DNA of 64,000 nucleotides from Streptomyces sp. NBC_00659 (GTDB taxonomy: Bacteria; Actinomycetota; Actinomycetes; Streptomycetales; Streptomycetaceae), in assembly GCF_036226925.1 (NCBI RefSeq), contig NZ_CP109031.1, positions 3,534,001-3,598,000 of the forward strand. Reading direction: 5' to 3'. Both the position numbers and the translations under genes were made by a program. Numbering within the stretch: the first letter of the stretch is position 1; each line of letters starts with the position of its first letter. Below the pieces are notes generated by a model. That model was not told where the DNA came from. It searched no databases and saw only the letters and a list, made by a program, of their open reading frames with translations. Shown piece after piece: positions 40,128-48,339 of this stretch.

Positions 40128-40712
40128 TCACTTCTTGTCGACGAGCTTCCACGCGGCGGGCAGGATGCCCATCGCCAGGGCGGCCTTGAGGGCGTCGCCG
40201 ATCAGGAACGGGGTGAGGCCCGCCGCGAGGGCCGCGCTCGCCGACATGCCGGTGGCCATGCCCAGGTAGGGGACACCGACCACGTAGATGATCGCCTCGC
40301 CGAGCAGCATCGTGCCCGCCATGCGCAGCACGGAGCGGTCGGCGCCGCGGCGCGCCAGGGCACCCACGACGGTCGACGCGAGCAGCATGCCGAGGATGTA
40401 GCCGAAGGACGGCGCCGAGGCACCGGAGCTGCCCTGCGCGAACCACGGGACGCCGGCCATGCCCACGAGCGCGTACATCGCGAGCGAGAGGAAGCCGCGG
40501 CGCGCGCCGAGCGCCGTGCCGACGAGCAGCGCGGCGAAGGTCTGGCCGGTCACCGGCACCGGGGAACCGGGGACGGGCAGCGAGATCTGGGCGGCGAGCC
40601 CGGTGAGTGCGGCACCGCCGAGCACGAGGGCGGCGTCACGGACGCGGGAGGCCGGAAGAAGGTCGGCGAGGACCTCGCCGGGTCGGGAGGGCGTGGCGAC
40701 AGCGGTGCTCAT
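40128..40712 (-). CDS. bioY: Biotin transporter substrate-binding component BioY
   Basis: A 194-aa membrane protein with about six TM helices and the BioY signature ISLPVPGSPVPVTGQTFAALLVG near its start, plus TALGARRGFLSLAMYALVGMAGVPWFAQG. It binds biotin as the S-component of an ECF transporter; no bioM/bioN genes are adjacent, so it may work alone or with a shared ECF module. ATG at 40712 with GGAG upstream. No biotin repressor site was recognised. Confidence 0.94.
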   Translation of the reverse strand: MSTAVATPSRPGEVLADLLPASRVRDAALVLGGAALTGLAAQISLPVPGSPVPVTGQTFAALLVGTALGARRGFLSLAMYALVGMAGVPWFAQGSSGASAPSFGYILGMLLASTVVGALARRGADRSVLRMAGTMLLGEAIIYVVGVPYLGMATGMSASAALAAGLTPFLIGDALKAALAMGILPAAWKLVDKK

Positions 40713-41060
40713 GAGGACTCCGGCGAACAGGGGTTACCCCCTCGGCCCATGGAGAGCCCGGGGGGAGGACGGGTGGGAACACGGCGACGCTATCCCAGGG
40801 GCTCACGGGTGATCACCGTCAGCGATCGACAAAGCGCGGATCCGGGGCTTGGTGGGCTCCTTACAAAGAGTGCCCGGTACACCTGCCCGAAGGTGATGCT
40901 GGTCACTGAGGTGAAGTCGTTTTCGCTACGGAGCTGTTCGGGGCGGGGACTGTGGAGACTCACCAAAGGCCGCAGCGAGCGTCACGTCGTCGGGCGGGCG
41001 GAGTGTCCGGTCCTTGGGCGTTCCTGGCGGGTCCCCCGGCCGACCCCTACCCTTCACCCC
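40713..41060. other. 348-bp divergent promoter region bioY / leader peptide 1
   Basis: No gene. On the minus strand a -10-like TAGCGT (40787-40792) could serve bioY. On the plus strand TACCCT at 41048-41053 lies 7 nt before the ATG of the first leader ORF, which fits a leaderless transcript. Confidence 0.45.
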
Positions 41061-41147
41061 ATGGTTCCCCAGGCCCTGAACTTCGCGTCGCGTCGCTATG
41101 TCGACCTGCGACGCCAGGGCACTGCCACCTGTCGCCGCCCCTCCTGA
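41061..41147 (+). CDS. Leader peptide 1 (28 aa, VDL-x-R...C type) upstream of the ROK regulator
   Basis: ATG at 41061, TGA at 41145-41147. The peptide contains RRYVDLRRQGTATCRR, which fits the 'putative leader peptide' pattern found before sulfur-metabolism genes in actinobacteria (x-VDL-x-R, small residues, then Cys). No SD is present, and a -10-like TACCCT sits 7 nt upstream, so the mRNA is probably leaderless, as described for mycobacterial cysteine leader ORFs. A GGCGGG/CCCGCC hairpin starts right after the stop codon. I infer attenuation of the downstream regulator by cysteine supply. Confidence 0.65.
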   Translation: MVPQALNFASRRYVDLRRQGTATCRRPS

Positions 41148-41275: not shown

Positions 41276-42502
41276 ATGGCCAGTACGGTGGCACCTCCTT
41301 CCACATTCACTCCCTCTCCCTCCCCTTCCCCCTCCCCCGTCCTCGACCGGCGCCGGGCGAGCGCCAGCGTGATCCTGCGGTCGGTGCTGGAGCACGGGCC
41401 GATCGCGCGCAGCACCATCTCCCGGCTGACCGGGCTCTCCCCGGCGTCGGTGACCGACTACTGCGCCCGGTTCACCGAGCGGGGCCTGATCCGGGAGGCC
41501 GCCGCACCCCGGCGGTCGGGCGGGGTCGGGCGGCCGCATCTCCCGGTCGACCTGGACCACTCCCGTTTCGTGGTCGGCGGGGTGCACGTGGCCGTGCCGT
41601 ACACGACCGTCGCGCTGCTCGACCTGCGCGGACGGGTTCTCGCCGAGAGGCGTCTGCGGCACGACCGCACCGAGCCGGGCCTCGTTCTCGCGAACGCCGC
41701 CGCCGCCATCACCTCTCTCCTCGCCGGTGTCCCCGGCCGTTCCGCCCTCGGCATCGGGGTGGCGGCCGGGGGCTGGGTGGACCCGGACTCGGGGACGATC
41801 GTGGAGCACCCGCTGCTGGGCTGGCGTGACGTGGCCGTCCGGGAGGCCGTCGGCGCGCTCACGGGGCTTCCGGTCCATGTGGACGGCCACGCGCGGGCGT
41901 TGGTCAACGGGGAGCGGCTGTTCGGGCGGGCCAGGGGCAGCCGGAGCGTGCTGCATCTCTTCGTCGGCAACGTGGTGGACGCCGCCTTCGCCACCCACGA
42001 CCAGGTGCACTACGGACCTCGCTCGCAGGCCGGCTCGATCGCCCATCTGCCCCTGACGGGCGGGTCGGAGCGATGCGACTGCGGCCGGACGGGGTGCCTC
42101 CAGGCCGAGCTGAGCGAACGGACGCTGTGCCGGCGGGCCCGGGAGCTCGGTGTCACGGACGGCTCGAATCCGATGCACGTGGTCGCCGCGGCGGCCTCCG
42201 GCGATCCGCTGGCCGTGGGACTGCTGACGGAGCGGTCCCGGATGGTCGGGCGGGCGGCGGGGCTGCTGCTCGACGTCCTCAATCCGGAGACGGTCGTCGT
42301 CACCGAGATAGGGGCCATGCACCGGGAGGACTGCCTCGGCGCGCTGCGCGAGGCGGTGGGACCGGAGCGGGCGTCCGCGGTCGTCCCCACCAGCTTCCCC
42401 GATTCGGTGCTCGCCGTGGCGGGCGGGTCGGTCGTTCTCGACGTCCTGTACCGCGATCCGCTGGGCTCTCCGGACTTCTCCGGGCCGCTCACCGGGCGTT
42501 AA
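41276..42502 (+). CDS. ROK-family transcriptional regulator of the sulfonate locus
   Basis: A 408-aa protein. A Ser/Pro-rich start is followed by a winged helix-turn-helix (about 28-85: ARSTISRLTGLSPASVTDYCARFTERGLIRE) and a ROK sugar-kinase fold with the zinc motif CDCGRTGCLQAE. ROK repressors usually respond to sugars. Here the neighbours are organosulfur genes, so the ligand is open and the fold may be reused. ATG at 41276 with AGGAAG upstream; the frame runs further upstream but begins outside the leader region without support. Confidence 0.88.
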   Translation: MASTVAPPSTFTPSPSPSPSPVLDRRRASASVILRSVLEHGPIARSTISRLTGLSPASVTDYCARFTERGLIREAAAPRRSGGVGRPHLPVDLDHSRFVVGGVHVAVPYTTVALLDLRGRVLAERRLRHDRTEPGLVLANAAAAITSLLAGVPGRSALGIGVAAGGWVDPDSGTIVEHPLLGWRDVAVREAVGALTGLPVHVDGHARALVNGERLFGRARGSRSVLHLFVGNVVDAAFATHDQVHYGPRSQAGSIAHLPLTGGSERCDCGRTGCLQAELSERTLCRRARELGVTDGSNPMHVVAAAASGDPLAVGLLTERSRMVGRAAGLLLDVLNPETVVVTEIGAMHREDCLGALREAVGPERASAVVPTSFPDSVLAVAGGSVVLDVLYRDPLGSPDFSGPLTGR

Positions 42503-42554
42503 TTAATTCAGAAAGTCGCAAAGTTGACAGGGCTCGTTCCGGGACAGGAGCATC

Positions 42555-42644
42555 ATGGGCATGAGCAGCGCGCGGGTGCAGGTTCCGCTCACCAAGTGCC
42601 GTGTGGTCGACCTGATGCGGGTCGCACGCACACGTTGTTGCTGA
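42555..42644 (+). CDS. Leader peptide 2 (29 aa, ends Cys-Cys) upstream of the sulfonate transport operon
   Basis: ATG at 42555 with SD GGAG 4 nt upstream (a second in-frame ATG at 42561 has better spacing), TGA at 42642-42644. The C-terminal part reads KCRVVDLMRVARTRCC: a VDL-x-R-V core and two consecutive Cys codons (TGT TGC) right before the stop. This is the hallmark of cysteine-sensing leader peptides ahead of sulfur assimilation genes in actinobacteria. A 407-nt gene-free stretch separates it from the lipoprotein gene, enough room for alternative RNA structures. It is too short for normal gene calling. Confidence 0.72.
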   Translation: MGMSSARVQVPLTKCRVVDLMRVARTRCC

Positions 42645-43051
42645 CCCCTTGTCGCTGACCGGTCGCCGCTGACGCTTCGTCACCGGCATCGTGGTCACCG
42701 ATCCTCCGAGACGCCGATCCGCTGACGCGCTGATCCGTCGACCGGCCGGTCCCTTCTCCGGCTGACCTCTTCTCCGACTGGTCCGCCGCAGCGCCCGGGT
42801 GTGCTCCGCGGCCTTCGACCCGAGGGTCTCCCGGCCGTCGTCACGCGTTCACGCGTCACACCGCCCCGCCAAGGGCCGGCCGGCCGACATCCTCCGTCGC
42901 GCGGGCCGTCCGGCCGTCGTCGCCTCGGTCACCCGTCTCCTCCACCACGCCACCGGCGTGTGTCCTTTCGGCGCGCCTGCATCCCTTCCGGCTTCGCCCT
43001 GCCCGGAACTTCGCGCGCTCTCCCGTCACCTGGAATCTCCGGAGTCCTTCC
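42645..43051 (+). promoter_or_regulatory. 407-nt leader region between leader peptide 2 and the transport operon
   Basis: No gene supported. Inverted elements include the palindrome GACCGGCCGGTC (42740-42751) and several G/C-rich complementary runs, but I cannot single out one terminator/antiterminator pair by eye. It ends with GGAG ahead of the lipoprotein ATG at 43052. Confidence 0.4.
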
Positions 43052-44152
43052 ATGCCACCACTGTCCGCACGGTCAACGCGCCCCTCCTCGCCCCTGTCCG
43101 CGTCCGGTGTCGACCGGCGCGTGTTCCTGTCCTCCCTCATCGGTGTCGCGGCGGCGGCCGGACTGAGCGGATGCGCCGGTGCCAGTGCGGCCGGCAGCCG
43201 GTCCCAGGGGGACCTGTCGGCGCCCCTGTCCGACAAGGTGCCGCGGGGCACCAAGCTCTCGATCGCCTCGTACCAAGGCGTCCAGGAACTCCAGTTCAAG
43301 CTGGCGGGGTTGGCCGATCTGCCGTTCGCCGTCTCCGACTGGGTGAACATCGGCGCCGGACCCGATGTCATCAACGCCTTCCGCTCCAAGTCCCTGGACA
43401 TCGGCAACAACGCGGGCATCCCGCCGATCCAGGCGCACTTCCAGGGTTTCGACGCGAAGATCGTCGCGATCAACATCACCCGCAAGCCCAACTACCTGTT
43501 CGCCACCAAGCCCGGCAGCGACATCCGGGACGTGCGCGGGTTCAAGGGGAAGAAGCTCGCCTTCTCCCAGGGCCAGGCGCAGGGAGTCGTGCTGCTGCGC
43601 GCCCTGAAGCAGGCCGGCCTCGCCTACGACGACGTGAACCTCGTACCGCTGACCAGCAACCAGTTCCTCACCGCGCTCCAGGCGGGCCAGGTGGACATCG
43701 CCCCGCTCGCCAACAGCCAGGTGCCGGCCTATCTCAAGCAGTACGGGTCCAAGGGCGCCCACACCATCGCCACCGACGTGGTGGACCTGCTCAACCTGCT
43801 CTGGGCGCCGTCGTCGGTGCTGGCCGACCACGCGAAGGCGGCCGCGGTCGCCGCGTACATCCCGCGCTGGGCCAAGGGCCAGGTGTGGACGTACGAGCAC
43901 CCCGACGCCTGGAACGAGGAGTTCTACGTCAAGACGCAGAACCTGACGCTCGCCCAGGCCCAGTCGATCACCGAGCTCGCCAACAAGCCGTTGTTCCCGC
44001 CGAGTTGGGACGAGGCCGTCAAGTGGGAGCAGGAGACCGCCGATCTGCTGGCGGAGGGCGGCTTCGTGAAGGGGTTCAAGGTCGACTCGCTCTTCGACCG
44101 GCGCTTCGAGGACATCGCGGCCAAGGCCGTGACCGCGGAATACCGGAGGTGA
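43052..44152 (+). CDS. ssuA: ABC transporter substrate-binding lipoprotein, sulfonate/taurine type (SsuA-like)
   Basis: A 366-aa protein. A twin-arginine-like start (DRRVFLSSLIGVAAAAGLSGC) carries a lipobox LSGC with the lipidated Cys41. The NMT1/SsuA-type fold shows GPDVINAFRSKSLDIGNNAGIPP, the loop characteristic of aliphatic sulfonate, nitrate and taurine binders. First gene of an operon with its permease (5-bp gap), ATPase, monooxygenase and dioxygenase. The exact ligand is unknown, most likely an organosulfonate. Confidence 0.88.
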   Translation: MPPLSARSTRPSSPLSASGVDRRVFLSSLIGVAAAAGLSGCAGASAAGSRSQGDLSAPLSDKVPRGTKLSIASYQGVQELQFKLAGLADLPFAVSDWVNIGAGPDVINAFRSKSLDIGNNAGIPPIQAHFQGFDAKIVAINITRKPNYLFATKPGSDIRDVRGFKGKKLAFSQGQAQGVVLLRALKQAGLAYDDVNLVPLTSNQFLTALQAGQVDIAPLANSQVPAYLKQYGSKGAHTIATDVVDLLNLLWAPSSVLADHAKAAAVAAYIPRWAKGQVWTYEHPDAWNEEFYVKTQNLTLAQAQSITELANKPLFPPSWDEAVKWEQETADLLAEGGFVKGFKVDSLFDRRFEDIAAKAVTAEYRR

Positions 44153-44157
44153 CGGCC

Positions 44158-45186
44158 ATGACGACCAGAATCACGACCACGGACCGGACCTCGACCGGGG
44201 CCCCACATCCCTCACCGCCGACCGGGACCACCCTCCCCTCAGCTCCGACCGCGGTCACGGACGACCCCGCGACCGACGCCGGAACCGGCACCGGATCGCC
44301 GCCGGCCACCGCTTCGGCCGTACCGGACAGGACGGAGGCGGTCGAGGCGAACGCCGTCGACGGGGCCGTAACCGGCGGTCGCCGGTTCCGGCGGGCTCCC
44401 CGTGCCCGGCGCCGCGGTCTCGCGCCCGGCAAGCGGCTGCCGGCCTCCCGGCTCATCGGTCCGGCGCTGTTCCTCGCCCTGTGGGCCGTGGCGTCCGCCG
44501 CGGGACAACTGGATCCCGGCGCGATCCCCGCGCCCTGGACGGTGCTGAAGACCACCGGTCATCTGTGGACCGACGGCACGCTGCCCACCGACGTGCTGAC
44601 GTCCCTGGAGCGCGCGGGATACGGCTTCGCGTTCGGCCTGACCGCCGGCGTCCTGCTCGCCCTCGCGTCCGGGCTCAGCCGGGTCGGCGAGGCGCTGATC
44701 GACGGGACCGTGCAGCTCAACCGGGCGATCCCGACCCTCGGTCTGATCCCGCTGTTCATCCTCTGGCTGGGCATCGGCGAGACCTTCAAGATCGCGATCA
44801 TCGCCATCGTCGTCTACATCCCGATCTATCTGAACCTGCACTCCGCCCTGTCGGGCATCGATCACCGGTTCGTGGAACTCGCGGAGGTCCAGGGGCTGTC
44901 GCGGCTCCGTTTCGTCCGGGAGATCGTGATCCCCGGCGCGCTGCCCGGCTTCTTCGTCGGGCTGCGGCTCGGCGTGACCGGCTCCTGGCTCTCCCTGGTC
45001 GTCCTGGAGCAGATCAACGCCACCAGCGGCCTCGGCTACATGATGTTCCAGGCCCAGAACTACGGCCGGACCGACATCATCCTCGTCGGCCTGCTGATCT
45101 ACGGCATCTTCGGTCTCATCTCCGACAGCGCGGTTCGTATCGTCGAACGAAAGGTGCTGTCGTGGCGACGCACACTCAGCAGCTGA
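44158..45186 (+). CDS. ssuC: ABC transporter permease, sulfonate type (SsuC-like)
   Basis: A 342-aa protein. A Thr/Pro/Ala-rich cytoplasmic extension of about 100 residues precedes a six-TM BPD permease domain. The ATPase-docking EAA loop reads EVQGLSRLRFVREIVIPGALPG. ATG at 44158, its GGAGG overlapping the end of the lipoprotein gene. The last 25 bp overlap the ATPase gene. The extended low-complexity N-terminus is unusual for SsuC, and a later start cannot be excluded. Confidence 0.88.
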   Translation: MTTRITTTDRTSTGAPHPSPPTGTTLPSAPTAVTDDPATDAGTGTGSPPATASAVPDRTEAVEANAVDGAVTGGRRFRRAPRARRRGLAPGKRLPASRLIGPALFLALWAVASAAGQLDPGAIPAPWTVLKTTGHLWTDGTLPTDVLTSLERAGYGFAFGLTAGVLLALASGLSRVGEALIDGTVQLNRAIPTLGLIPLFILWLGIGETFKIAIIAIVVYIPIYLNLHSALSGIDHRFVELAEVQGLSRLRFVREIVIPGALPGFFVGLRLGVTGSWLSLVVLEQINATSGLGYMMFQAQNYGRTDIILVGLLIYGIFGLISDSAVRIVERKVLSWRRTLSS

Positions 45187-46019
45187 CCCGCTCCCACACG
45201 GTCCGGCTGCGCGGGCTCACCCGGTCGTTCGAGGGCCGCACGGTGCTCGACCACGTCGACCTCGACCTCCCGGCGGGCCAGTTCACCGCCCTGCTGGGCC
45301 ACAGCGGCTCCGGCAAGAGCACGCTGCTGCGCGCCATCGCCGGCCTCGACCACGGCGTGGCCGGGAGCGGGGAACTCACCGCCCCGGAGCGGGTGTCCGT
45401 CGTCTTCCAGGACTCCCGGCTGCTGCCGTGGCGCCGCGTCCTCGACAACGTCCTGCTGGGCGCGGACGGCCGGGAGGCCGCGGACAAGGGCCGCTCCGCC
45501 CTCGCCGAGGTGGGACTCGCGGGGCGCGAACGGGCCTGGCCCAACGAGCTCTCCGGCGGCGAGGCCCAGCGCGCCGCCCTGGCCCGCTCGCTCGTCCGGG
45601 AACCCGAACTGCTGCTGGCCGACGAGCCGTTCGGGGCGCTGGACGCGCTCACCCGGATCCGTATGCATGTGCTGCTGCGCGAACTGTGGGAGCGACACCG
45701 GCCCTCCGTGCTGCTCGTCACGCACGACGTGGACGAGGCGATCGTGCTGGCCGACCGGGTGCTCGTGCTCGACCACGGCCGCATCGGCGTCGACCTGTCC
45801 ATCGACCGCCCGCACCCCCGCTCGTACCGCGATCCGCTGCTCGGCGCCTACCGCGAGCGGCTGCTGAACGCCCTCGGGGTCACCGAGGACGTGACAGGGA
45901 CCGCGGCGAGGACGGAACCCGGGGCGGCGGCGGCACACACCGCGGCCGAACCGGAAACGACGGCGGACGGCGGCGGCGGGCACGGCGTGTCCGCGCACCA
46001 GAAGGAGAAGCACCTGTGA
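45162..46019 (+). CDS. ssuB: ABC transporter ATP-binding protein, sulfonate type (SsuB-like)
   Basis: A 285-aa ATPase with Walker A GHSGSGKST, Q-loop VVFQDSRLLPW, signature LSGGEAQR, Walker B LLLADEPFGALD and switch His in LLVTHDVDEA. The core ends near residue 230; an Ala/Glu/Thr-rich tail follows. GTG at 45162 with AAGG upstream, inside the permease 3' end, and its TGA overlaps the next GTG (GTGA), so the genes are translationally coupled. Confidence 0.92.
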   Translation: MATHTQQLTRSHTVRLRGLTRSFEGRTVLDHVDLDLPAGQFTALLGHSGSGKSTLLRAIAGLDHGVAGSGELTAPERVSVVFQDSRLLPWRRVLDNVLLGADGREAADKGRSALAEVGLAGRERAWPNELSGGEAQRAALARSLVREPELLLADEPFGALDALTRIRMHVLLRELWERHRPSVLLVTHDVDEAIVLADRVLVLDHGRIGVDLSIDRPHPRSYRDPLLGAYRERLLNALGVTEDVTGTAARTEPGAAAAHTAAEPETTADGGGGHGVSAHQKEKHL

Positions 46020-47398
46020 CCAGCCCTCGCCGGCTCCATCTCAACGCCTTCCTGATGAACACCGGCCATCACGAGGCCTCCTGGCGGCTCCCGGAGAGCG
46101 ACCCGTACGCCCATGTCGAGACGGCCCACTACGTGCGTCTCGCGCGGATCGCCGAACGCGGCACCTTCGACTCCCTCTTCCTCGCCGACGGCCCGGTCCT
46201 CTTCAACAGCGTGGGCCAGCGCCCGTCCGGGGCGCTCGAACCCATCACCCTGCTCACCGCGCTGGCCACCGCGACCGAGCACATCGGCCTGATCGCCACC
46301 GCCTCCACGTCCTACAACTCCCCCTACAACCTGGCCCGCAGACTCGCCTCCCTCGATCACATCAGCGGTGGCCGAGCGGGCTGGAACATCGTGACCACGG
46401 CGGGCGCGGAGGCCGCCCGCAACTTCGGTCTCGACGACGAGCCCGCGCACGCCACCCGCTACGAGCGCGCCGCCGAGTTCCTGGACGTGGCGCTCAAGCT
46501 CTGGGACAGCTGGGAGGACGACCTCGTCGTCGCCGACAAGACGGCGGGAGTCTGGGGCGACCCCGGCAAGATCCATCCCGCGCGGCACAAGGGGACGTAC
46601 TTCAGTGTGGAGGGCGCCCTCAACGTGCCCCGCACACCGCAGGGTCACCCGCTTCTCGTGCAGGCGGGCTCCTCGGAGAACGGCAAACGGTTCGCGGCCC
46701 GGTACGCGGAAGCGGTGTTCACCGCCCAGCAGACCCTCGCGGACGCCCAGGACTTCTACGCCGACCTCAAGTCCCGTACCGAGCGGGCCGGCCGGAACCC
46801 GGACCACCTCAAGGTTCTGCCCGGCATCGTCCCGGTCATCGGCTCGACCGAGGCGGAGGCGCTCGCCCACGAGCGGGTCCTGGAGGACCACATCGTGTAC
46901 GAGCACGGGGTGAACCGTCTGGAGCACCTGCTCCACCTGGAGCCGGGGACCCTCCGTCTCGACGCGCGACTGCCCGCCGACCTGCCGCCGGAGAGCGCGA
47001 TCGAGGGGGCCAAGAGCCGCTACACCCTCGTCGTGGAGCTCGCCCGGCGCGAGCGGCTCACCGTCCGCGAACTGATCGGCCGGCTCGGCGGCGGGCGGGG
47101 CCATCTGACCTTCGCCGGCACACCCGAGCAGGTCGCCGACGCGATCGAGGAGTGGTTCCGCGGCGGCGCCGCCGACGGATTCAACATCATGCCGGCCGTA
47201 CTGCCGTCGGGGCTCGACCTCTTCGTGGACCACGTGGTGCCGATCCTGCGCGACCGGGGTCTGCTCCGCCGGGAGTACGGGCCCCGGCAGACCCTGCGGG
47301 AACGCTACGGGCTTCCGCGCCCTGCCAACCGGTACGCGACACCGACCACGACGGCGACGGCGGCCACGCTCCCCGCACCCGCGATCGCCCTCGCCTGA
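46016..47398 (+). CDS. FMN-dependent monooxygenase, NtaA/SnaA/DszA family
   Basis: A 460-aa luciferase-fold enzyme. The start LHLNAFLMNTGHHEASWRLP and the segments FDSLFLADGPVLFN, TASTSYNSPYNLARRLASLDH and GRAGWNIVTTAGAEAARNFG are characteristic of the NtaA/DszA subgroup, which oxidise C-N or C-S bonds with FMNH2 from a separate reductase. In this operon it probably cleaves a sulfonate or sulfone to release sulfite. GTG at 46016 overlaps the ATPase stop by 4 bp, with AAGGAG upstream. No flavin reductase gene is adjacent. Confidence 0.9.
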   Translation: MTSPRRLHLNAFLMNTGHHEASWRLPESDPYAHVETAHYVRLARIAERGTFDSLFLADGPVLFNSVGQRPSGALEPITLLTALATATEHIGLIATASTSYNSPYNLARRLASLDHISGGRAGWNIVTTAGAEAARNFGLDDEPAHATRYERAAEFLDVALKLWDSWEDDLVVADKTAGVWGDPGKIHPARHKGTYFSVEGALNVPRTPQGHPLLVQAGSSENGKRFAARYAEAVFTAQQTLADAQDFYADLKSRTERAGRNPDHLKVLPGIVPVIGSTEAEALAHERVLEDHIVYEHGVNRLEHLLHLEPGTLRLDARLPADLPPESAIEGAKSRYTLVVELARRERLTVRELIGRLGGGRGHLTFAGTPEQVADAIEEWFRGGAADGFNIMPAVLPSGLDLFVDHVVPILRDRGLLRREYGPRQTLRERYGLPRPANRYATPTTTATAATLPAPAIALA

Positions 47399-47445: not shown

Positions 47446-48339
47446 ATGTCCGACATCGAGATCCAGAAGGTCACCGCACACATCGGTGCCCGTGTCCTGG
47501 GCGTCGACATCTCCAAGCCCCTGGACGACATCACCGCCGCCGCCCTGCGCACCGCCCTCAACGAGCACAAGGCGCTGGTCTTCGACGACGTCGACCTGGA
47601 CGACGAGGGCCAGCAGGCCTTCGCCCGCCACTTCGGCGACCTCACCACCGCGCACCCCACCGTGCCCGCCGTCGACGGCGCCCCGAACGTGCTGCCCGTC
47701 GACAGCGAGCGGGGCCGCGCCAATCACTGGCACACCGACGTGACCTTCGTCCTCAACCCGCCGCAGGCCAGCACCCTGCGCAGCATCACCGTCCCGCCGT
47801 ACGGAGGCGAGACGCTCATCGCCAACTCCGCGGCTGCCTACCGCGATCTGCCCGAACCGCTCCGCGCCTTCGCCGACACCCTGTGGGCCGAGCACACCAA
47901 CGACTACGACTACGCGGTGCCGGACGAGAACATCGACGAGGAACAGGCCGCGCAGCGCGCCCAGTTCACGTCCATCAAGTTCCGCACCGTGCACCCGGTC
48001 GTCCGGGTGCACCCGCTGACCGGTGAACGCGGCCTGTTCATCGGCGGGTTCGCGCAGCGGATCGCCGGGCTGTCGGTGGGCGAGTCCCGCAAGATCCTCG
48101 ACCTGCTCCAGGCGTACGTCACCCGGCCCGAGAACGTCCTGCGCTGGCGCTGGTCCCCGAACCAGCTCGTCCTGTTCGACAACCGGATCACCCAGCACTA
48201 CGCGATCGACAACTACGACAACCTGCCGCGCCGTCTGCACCGAGTGACGGTCGCCGGTGACGTGCCGGTCGGCATCGAGGGCAAGGAGAGCCACTCGATC
48301 ACGGGCGATGCCTCGCACTACACATCGGTGGCCGGGTGA
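47446..48339 (+). CDS. TauD/TfdA-family Fe(II)/2-oxoglutarate dioxygenase
   Basis: A 297-aa enzyme. The iron ligands are His96 and Asp98 (NHWHTDVTF) and His265 (PRRLHRVTV), with WSPNQLVLFDNRITQHYA near the 2-oxoglutarate site. TauD enzymes hydroxylate the carbon next to a sulfonate or sulfate ester, releasing sulfite or sulfate. Last gene of the operon, 47 bp after the monooxygenase, with AGAGGA upstream, and followed by a strong terminator. Confidence 0.92.
   Translation: MSDIEIQKVTAHIGARVLGVDISKPLDDITAAALRTALNEHKALVFDDVDLDDEGQQAFARHFGDLTTAHPTVPAVDGAPNVLPVDSERGRANHWHTDVTFVLNPPQASTLRSITVPPYGGETLIANSAAAYRDLPEPLRAFADTLWAEHTNDYDYAVPDENIDEEQAAQRAQFTSIKFRTVHPVVRVHPLTGERGLFIGGFAQRIAGLSVGESRKILDLLQAYVTRPENVLRWRWSPNQLVLFDNRITQHYAIDNYDNLPRRLHRVTVAGDVPVGIEGKESHSITGDASHYTSVAG

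What the first reader, a model, noticed from the sequence alone, without database searches (positions are those of the whole stretch)
42555..43051. Second leader peptide ending Cys-Cys ahead of the sulfonate operon
The 29-codon ORF ends RVARTRCC, with adjacent TGT TGC codons directly before TGA, a good SD, and a 407-nt gene-free region down to the lipoprotein gene. Stalling at two Cys codons next to the stop is the textbook arrangement for a cysteine-sensing attenuator or terminator-access switch. Two different leader peptides in one 1.6-kb regulatory interval, one probably leaderless and one with an SD, is the part I have not seen described.
Basis: partly seen in the sequence, partly recalled or inferred. 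Interest (0 to 1): 0.78.

Follow-up and report, generated by a model that had tools for sequence, protein, structure and literature searches.

The report
Leaderless Cys-Cys-stop leader, sulfonate operon
In front of a Streptomyces sulfonate-scavenging operon sits a tiny gene that ends in two cysteine codons, probably a built-in gauge of cysteine supply; it belongs to a known kind of switch, but here it comes as one of a conserved pair, and the copies examined use the rarer cysteine codon at the key place.

Summary
The ORF is real and strongly conserved. Reading it as a cysteine-sensing leader peptide is well supported by comparison, but nothing has been measured. (1) It is probably leaderless, starting at 42561, not Shine-Dalgarno-led from 42555: in 29 of 29 close loci an ATG lies 36-37 nt after the start of a TTGACA box, though the peptides have 8 to 27 codons. 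(2) The two leaders are one class, not two: both share (R/C)RxVDLxRxxxxxC, both score below the NCBIfam cut-offs, and they flank a ROK regulator across Streptomyces. In 41 of 53 loci on the tree the core is gone, leaving M..CRTx(C/R) variants. The sensing Cys codon is TGT in 69/69 leader 1, 29/29 and 25/25 leader 2 and 39/39 family leaders (overlapping sets; one family member has no Cys), against 15 of 109 in genes. Cysteine-responsive leaderless leaders are known in mycobacteria. New here: the pair around the regulator, the core-less 8-codon form and the invariant UGU. For the output step I favour Rho on a C-rich tract; RBS masking and an intrinsic terminator found no support.

The parts
41048..41053 (+). 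-10-like hexamer TACCCT of leader 1
   Evidence: TANNNT ending 6-7 nt before the ATG in 68 of 69 leader-1-type ORFs
41061..41147 (+). leader 1, 28 aa MVPQALNFASRRYVDLRRQGTATCRRPS, probably leaderless; sensing Cys codon TGT at 41130-41132
   Evidence: NF042934 'putative leader peptide' 18.7 bits, E 9.7e-4, cut-off 27; leader-1-type ORF in 69 of 74 loci, Cys codon TGT 69 of 69
41276..42502 (+). ROK-family transcriptional regulator (SsuR/CysR-like by context)
   Evidence: Pfam ROK PF00480 E 5.9e-30, HTH_24
42503..42523 (+). putative operator TTAATTCAGAAAGTCGCAAAG directly before the -35
   Evidence: TTAATTCAGAAA once in the window at up to 2 mismatches (0.08 expected); TTAATTC (TAAATTC in L091) before TTGAC in 42 of 42 loci with an upstream ROK gene
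42524..42529 (+). -35 box TTGACA
   Evidence: ATG 37 nt after its first base in 28 of 29 loci, 36 in 1
42548..42553 (+). -10-like hexamer GAGCAT
   Evidence: aligned with GAACAT/GAGCAT of relatives; A2 and T6 in 28 of 29; too weak for the sigma-70 scan, which found no promoter here
42561..42644 (+). leader 2 as reinterpreted: MSSARVQVPLTKCRVVDLMRVARTRCC, leaderless
   Evidence: conserved start and ending; NF042933 leader_Ms5788A 14.4 bits, E 0.022, cut-off 45
42636..42641 (+). TGT TGC sensing codons before the TGA stop (42642-42644)
   Evidence: penultimate codon TGT in 29 of 29 and 25 of 25
42645..43037 (+). C-rich, G-poor untranslated tract, candidate Rho-loading region
   Evidence: C-G 0.165 over 393 nt, reached by 0.5% of same-size stretches of the window on either strand; C>G in 29 of 29 orthologous tracts
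43041..43044 (+). SD (GGAG) of the binding-protein gene
   Evidence: sequence; aligned in relatives
43052..44152 (+). SsuA-like sulfonate-binding lipoprotein
   Evidence: TIGR01728 E 2.3e-32 (112.4 bits, below cut-off 163.5), Pfam NMT1
44158..45186 (+). SsuC-like ABC permease
   Evidence: PRK11365 E 1.4e-51, below cut-off
45162..46019 (+). SsuB-like ABC ATPase
   Evidence: PRK11247 E 1.3e-74, below cut-off
46016..47398 (+). NtaA/DmoA-family FMN-dependent monooxygenase
   Evidence: TIGR03860 542.7 bits, over cut-off
47446..48339 (+). TauD-like dioxygenase
   Evidence: Pfam TauD E 7.3e-63

Best explanation
The ORF is a leaderless, cysteine-sensing leader peptide that controls the sulfonate uptake and desulfonation operon. 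SHOWN by comparison: a fixed promoter geometry (operator, TTGACA, -10-like hexamer) places the 5' end at or next to the ATG at 42561; the frame, the Cys-(Cys/Arg)-stop ending and the TGT codon are conserved; a second leader of the same class precedes the ROK regulator gene between them. INFERRED: with enough Cys-tRNA the ribosome reads through TGT TGC, releases at UGA and leaves a long untranslated C-rich RNA on which Rho ends transcription before the binding-protein gene. When Cys-tRNA is scarce the ribosome waits at the UGU codon at the leader's end, covers the start of that tract and lets RNA polymerase reach the operon. Leader 1 does the same for the ROK regulator, so regulator and operon rise together: a feed-forward arrangement in which both steps read cysteine. 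Cysteine sensing I hold at about 0.8; the Rho step alone at about 0.45.
For: Start and promoter: ATG 37 nt (28 loci) or 36 nt (1) after the start of TTGACA in 29 of 29 although leaders are 8-27 codons long; 24 at 37 and 1 at 36 in 25 of 25 named loci, leaders 8-52 codons. Operator, promoter and Cys-containing leader in 42 of 42 loci with an upstream ROK gene (gap 35-37) and in 0 of 7 without one (L081 of the 7 keeps a leader but not the operator; L104 and L107 are cut by contig ends). TGT as sensing codon: leader 2 29/29 and 25/25, leader 1 type 69/69, family leaders 39/39, in this genome 16 of the 16 members that have the Cys (sets overlap) versus 15 of 109 in genes (those ORFs were picked for high GC3, which favours TGC; ten hand-picked genes gave 2 of 15) and 4 of 29 for other Cys codons inside the same cores. 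Nucleotide-level conservation. Class members elsewhere in this genome before genes whose sequences I read as sulfite reductase, sulfurtransferase, cysteine synthase, TauD, OAH sulfhydrylase and others (by resemblance, no family scan). C>G tract in 29 of 29.
Against: No expression, ribosome-profiling or 3'-end data. Leader 2 is far below the NF042933 cut-off (14.4 of 45 bits) and gave no NF042934 hit at E<=1. The sigma-70 scan found no promoter, and a purine stretch about 10 nt before the ATG could be a weak SD. One class member over the cut-off, L006, ends SSAY-stop without any Cys in the core, so not every class member can sense cysteine this way. The tract after the leader varies from 108 to 407 nt and I found no strong common sequence, so the Rho step rests on composition alone; only 9 of 316 78-nt stretches of the window's tract exceed the window's 99th percentile for C minus G. 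How a ribosome stalled at the leader end would protect up to 407 nt is unexplained. An S. lividans RNA-seq study lists eight attenuators, none assigned to cysteine (PMC8079986, passages).
Confidence: 0.7

Rival explanations
1. Translational attenuation as reported for M. smegmatis: structure around the leader end sequesters the RBS of the binding-protein gene, and a ribosome stalled at Cys codons opens it.
For: Named as the mechanism of M. smegmatis cysteine genes in a passage of PMC13236596 (primary paper not held, its detail recalled). The SD is locally structured: about 8 kcal/mol to open on average, with a possible GGGA/UCCC hairpin.
Against: Masking the leader end changes the cost of opening the SD from 8.1 to 7.9 kcal/mol on average over 29 loci, and from 5.3 to 5.3 in the window; single loci move either way, L066 and L077 falling by about 2.
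Confidence: 0.25
2. Classical attenuation with mutually exclusive hairpins just after the leader stop.
For: In 12 compact relatives (11 distinct) a 4-bp helix right after the stop pairs in 90.9% of cells, with two-sided changes at 3 of 4 pairs; a second, crossing helix is possible.
Against: Shuffles reach that covariation score in 33 of 500; the second helix has no two-sided change. Mean z of the best post-stop hairpin is -0.8 over 29 loci. Only one weak terminator-like site in the window. The 12 rows are gap-free ones I chose out of 29.
Confidence: 0.15
3. The nascent peptide itself (the VDLMR core) arrests the ribosome and the Cys codons are incidental.
For: The core is conserved beyond the Cys in the long forms, in leader 1 and in other members of this genome; L006 keeps a core without Cys.
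Against: 41 of 53 loci on the tree have a core-less leader, as short as 8 codons, too short to reach far into the exit tunnel, yet the Cys ending stays. Selection is on the TGT nucleotide, not only on the residue.
Confidence: 0.07
4. SD-led leader: from 42555, or from 42561 with a distant SD.
For: AGGAG 4 nt before ATG 42555; GGGAA, AGGAA or AGGAG about 10 nt before the conserved ATG in most of the 29 loci.
Against: An in-frame ATG at the 42555 place occurs in 2 of 29 loci (window and L062). The conserved ATG keeps a fixed 36-37 nt from TTGACA, and the purine stretch coincides with the -10-like hexamer. No GGAG, GAGG or AGGA within -13..-4 in 29 loci.
Confidence: 0.15

Closest known systems
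Polycysteine leaderless short ORFs of mycobacteria (Canestrari et al. 2020; NCBIfam NF042933 leader_Ms5788A)
   Same: Leaderless, Cys codons near the end, in front of sulfur genes; related core; TGT as first Cys of the run in 7 of 7 leaders of an unnamed family (f6) that I take for mycobacterial
   Different: Here one Cys pair directly before the stop, often without the core, and as one of two leaders around a ROK regulator; no sign of the RBS-masking fold. Primary paper not held: known from passages in PMC13236596, PMC9094748 and PMC9031893, otherwise recalled
NCBIfam NF042934 cis_reg_atten 'putative leader peptide'
   Same: Leader 1 matches at E 9.7e-4; core RRxVDLxRxxxxxC
   Different: Leader 1 below cut-off (18.7 of 27 bits); leader 2 gives no hit
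cys-operon leader peptides of Mycobacterium and P. acnes, and cbs of B. longum (Seliverstov et al. 2005, PMC1262725, passages)
   Same: Cys runs near the stop, no conserved terminator, pyrimidine motifs, Rho proposed
   Different: No Streptomyces cysteine example and no sulfonate operon in the passages seen
uORFC-8-2 in front of cysS, Rhodobacterales (PMC8632094, passages)
   Same: Two tandem Cys codons in a uORF
   Different: UGC dominates there; two stems and an intrinsic terminator
C. glutamicum SsuR/CysR, ROK-type regulators of sulphonate and sulphur genes (PMC2580772, passages)
   Same: ROK regulator of sulfonate genes; inverted-repeat site; A/T-rich operator near the promoter here
   Different: There the repressor McbR supplies an upper tier; here Cys leaders sit at both steps. 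Orthology not tested
TnaC of E. coli (recalled)
   Same: Event at the leader's last codons governs Rho access just after the stop
   Different: TnaC is a nascent-chain arrest sensing tryptophan

Membership tests
NF042933 leader_Ms5788A | score over curated cut-off 45 | tested here: not met
   leader 2: 14.4 bits, E 0.022
NF042934 cis_reg_atten | score over curated cut-off 27 | tested here: not met
   leader 1: 18.7 bits, E 9.7e-4; leader 2 no hit at E<=1
leaderless Cys-responsive leader (works like) | start codon at the 5' end of the transcript | tested here: inconclusive
   promoter geometry favours it: 36-37 nt in 29 of 29; no TSS data; sigma-70 scan silent
leaderless Cys-responsive leader (works like) | conserved Cys codons close to the stop | tested here: met
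   28 of 29 end CC, 1 ends CR (the loci were picked by a pattern allowing both); 24 of 25 named end CC, 1 CR
leaderless Cys-responsive leader (works like) | sulfur-assimilation genes downstream | tested here: met
   SsuA/B/C-like, FMN monooxygenase, TauD
leaderless Cys-responsive leader (works like) | expression responds to cysteine | not testable with these tools
   needs a reporter
mycobacterial RBS-masking attenuation | stalled ribosome frees the downstream RBS | tested here: not met
   8.1 against 7.9 kcal/mol (folding model only)
classical transcription attenuator | intrinsic terminator between leader and gene | tested here: not met
   one weak site, 0.3 expected
Rho-dependent attenuator | C-rich, G-poor untranslated tract | tested here: met
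   C>G in 29 of 29; window tract in the top 0.5% at its length
Rho-dependent attenuator | termination depends on Rho | not testable with these tools
   needs 3'-end sequencing with Rho inhibited

The most novel reading that the evidence does not exclude
Across the actinobacterial cysteine-leader class the ribosome's sensing position is specifically UGU, not cysteine in general: a slowly read wobble codon serving as a tuned gauge of Cys-tRNA. The sulfonate locus shows the minimal sensor, an 8-codon leaderless MSCRTLCC, after natural loss of the peptide core, and pairs two such sensors, on the regulator and on its target, into one cysteine-gated feed-forward circuit.
Probability: 0.35. Interest if true: 0.7.

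Novelty: new variant of a known kind. Interest (0 to 1): 0.52.

Why it matters
It carries a mycobacterial type of cysteine switch into Streptomyces sulfonate scavenging and suggests that it acts at two steps of one circuit. The natural size series (50-52, 27, 8-13 codons) and the invariant UGU make a clear test possible between codon sensing and peptide arrest, and of synonymous-codon tuning where, by general knowledge, one tRNA reads both cysteine codons.

Tried and rejected
SD-led start from 42555 judged unlikely. RBS masking by a stalled ribosome: no consistent effect in folding. Intrinsic terminator: one weak site. Post-stop hairpins: best hairpin per locus, mean z -0.8 over 29 with 12 shuffles each; helix A weakly supported, helix B not. 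RNAalifold of 20 short forms and of 19 post-stop stretches gave no convincing structure. Rfam: only two tRNAs in the window. The pattern TGYCGNACNNNNTGYTGYTGA over 394 genomes (209 with a match) was too loose: many listed matches do not look like this leader and I did not sort them, so no count is drawn from it. Leader-1 counts: searches returned zero because my pattern was wrong; one search gave 72, of which 3 proved to be leader 2 of L090-L092; one search gives the corrected 69. For the TGT count I took only leaders whose DNA I held and whose match reached the last model position; L006 (no Cys) and matches ending earlier were left out, and about half of the rows had no locus. In one search one weak match of another family (L155, E 0.003) has TGC first in its run and was set aside as doubtful. 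Papers: Canestrari 2020 and D'Halluin 2023 are not held. Searches for prior art; no listed title or abstract start, and no passage I read, describes a Streptomyces sulfonate Cys leader or a UGU rule, but most subscription papers are outside that library.

Full report
WHAT IS THERE. The window is part of a 9.66-Mb single-contig genome (G000:C1:3534001-3598000) whose nearest named relatives at this locus are Streptomyces. The ORF 42555-42644 reads as described and ends TGT TGC TGA. Around it lie leader 1 (41061-41147), a ROK regulator (41276-42502), leader 2 (this finding), an SsuA-like lipoprotein (43052-44152), an SsuC-like permease, an SsuB-like ATPase, an NtaA/DmoA-type FMN monooxygenase and a TauD-like dioxygenase: a sulfonate scavenging operon. 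Ms5788A (leader 2) and 'putative leader peptide' (leader 1) are the only NCBIfam names the leaders draw, both below cut-off.

CONSERVATION. The binding protein has homologues (E<=1e-60) in 49 of 199 genomes searched. I fetched the upstream DNA of the other 48 (several cut by contig ends). Of 49 loci, window included, 42 have an upstream ROK gene; all 42 have the element TTAATTC (TAAATTC in L091), a TTGAC box and a Cys-containing short ORF whose ATG lies 35-37 nt after the start of that box. The 7 without a detected ROK gene (L075, L081, L103-L107) lack the operator; L081 keeps both leaders in series without operator or ROK, and L075 keeps only a leader-1 type. A leader-1-type ORF starting with ATG was found in 69 of 74 loci (49 plus 25): upstream of the ROK gene in 38 of the 42, in all 7 without ROK, and in 24 of the 25 named. 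Of the other five loci, L063, L093 and L218 are cut off by contig ends, L092 has the core without an ATG in my pattern, and L090 gave none.

START SITE. In the 29 close loci the ATG is 37 nt from the start of TTGACA in 28 and 36 in one, whether the peptide has 8 or 27 codons. The -10-like hexamer (GAACAT in 16, GAGCAT in 8) has A and T at the two key positions in 28 of 29, and no GGAG, GAGG or AGGA lies at -13..-4. A GGGAA/AGGAA/AGGAG stretch about 10 nt before the ATG could be a distant SD, and the sigma-70 scan finds no promoter; I still prefer leaderless because of the fixed distance. Leader 1 has TANNNT ending 6 or 7 nt before its ATG in 68 of 69. Both leaders look leaderless, and the window's start is more likely 42561 than 42555.

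THREE SIZES OF ONE LEADER. The window and its nearest kin carry MSSARVQVPLTKCRVVDLMRVARTRCC (one or two residues differ in L064 and L202). Another group (L196-L200) has 50-52 residues with a like end, as QVPLTKCRFIDLMRIGRTLCC in L197. Most others have MS-xxx-SCRTLCC or just MSCRTLCC. Another genus (L090-L092) has MDRH(H/L)VNLVKRRVIDLMRVGRSSC(R/C)R, so the core form is probably ancestral. On a tree of 53 binding proteins (55 less the two repeats; 41 short, 11 long, 1 without) the labels need 3 changes (shuffled mean 11.1), with three short forms nested among long ones at modest support, 80/72. I infer at least two losses of the VDLMR core, each leaving the Cys ending.

THE UGU CODON. The first Cys of the pair is TGT in 29 of 29 and 25 of 25; the sensing Cys of leader-1 types is TGT in 69 of 69; in 39 of 39 NF042934-type leaders for which I held DNA and whose match reaches the last model position (13 from this genome, leader 1 included) it is TGT, while other Cys codons inside those cores are 25 TGC and 4 TGT. 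Counting the weak matches L012, L016 and L019, this genome has 17 class members; 16 have the Cys, all TGT (in L016 it lies one codon beyond my frame mark), and L006 has none. These sets overlap and share descent, so they are not independent trials; but the 16 lie at different loci, and their Asp codon varies (5 of 16 GAT by my count). Background in 36 ORFs of the window is 15 TGT of 109 (chosen by high GC3, which lowers TGT). In seven leaders of a family I take for mycobacterial the first Cys of the run is likewise TGT; a doubtful weak match elsewhere, L155, is not. By general knowledge one tRNA-Cys (anticodon GCA) reads both codons, UGU by wobble; I did not check the tRNA set. A codon chosen for slow reading is my explanation, not a shown one; an RNA-level reason is not excluded.

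HOW IT PROBABLY WORKS. Cysteine sensing at the end of the leader is the core claim. For the output step I tested three ideas. RBS masking: forcing the leader end single-stranded did not ease opening of the SD on average (8.1 to 7.9 kcal/mol, 29 loci). Intrinsic termination: one weak site and no consistent hairpin. Rho: the tract after the stop has more C than G in all 29 (mean C 0.40, G 0.24), and the window's tract is in the top 0.5% for C minus G at its length, though only 9 of its 316 78-nt stretches pass the window's 99th percentile. Seliverstov et al. suggested Rho for mycobacterial cys leaders on similar grounds and called the evidence weak (PMC1262725, passages). I prefer Rho, at moderate confidence.

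PLACE IN A CIRCUIT. In C. glutamicum the ROK proteins SsuR and CysR govern sulphonate and sulphur genes and bind inverted repeats; CysR's has a TGAAtnnAAt half (PMC2580772, passages). Here TTTAATTCAGAAACTCGGAATRTTGACA, the relatives' consensus by eye, has ATTC and GAAT half-sites just before the -35, where an activator could sit. Regulator and target would each carry their own cysteine gauge. This is inference; orthology to SsuR was not tested.

NOVELTY. Cysteine leaders are a known kind: mycobacterial leaderless polycysteine ORFs (seen through passages in PMC13236596, PMC9094748 and PMC9031893; primary paper not held), and NCBIfam already names two models. The word 'ribulon', recalled from the primary abstract, is in no held paper. 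I found no held paper on the paired arrangement, the core-less form or the UGU rule (searches listed under Tried and rejected), which is not proof that none exists.

Noticed in passing
G000, loci L001-L016 and L019: Seventeen leader-class members in this genome (leader 1 included), before genes resembling sulfite reductase, sulfurtransferase, cysteine synthase, sulfonate-binding protein, cysteine dioxygenase, TauD, OAH sulfhydrylase, sulfite oxidase and peptide-binding proteins: a candidate cysteine-leader regulon.
   Followed up: partly
L006 (G000:C1:769254-769298): A class member over the cut-off that ends ...RVSSAY-stop with no Cys in the core; matches of the same span and score are listed in G087 and G095 (not read).
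   Followed up: partly
L065-L088 (short forms): CTGCGTGA 33-35 nt after the leader stop in 11 of 29 loci, with near variants in others, and GGAATTCC further down in many; no function assigned.
   Followed up: partly
window 43036-43054 and relatives: GGGAGnCCTCCCATG-like: the SD of the binding-protein gene can pair with the bases just before its start codon; seen with variants.
   Followed up: partly
L062, L063, L077, L084: Tandem repeats of GCTGAC/GTTGAC or of TGTTGCTGACAC units just after the leader stop, suggesting slippage there.
   Followed up: no
L093-L102: Distant loci have a longer leader (such as MTSRQRN...RRSCCRPCPGNR in L094) behind the same operator, and other DNA (a flavin-reductase-like gene in L093) between leader and binding protein.
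   Followed up: partly
L103-L107: Loci without a detected ROK gene have an RRxxDLMRxxxAxC-type leader in front of the binding protein, 63-170 nt before the match in the three measured (L104-L106).
   Followed up: no
S. lividans metL in PMC8079986 (passage): The peptide listed there as a methionine leader before metNIQ also holds three Cys near its end; it may deserve a second look as a cysteine leader.
   Followed up: no
window 40128-40712 (-): BioY-like biotin transporter gene divergent from the sulfonate locus, by sequence resemblance only.
   Followed up: no
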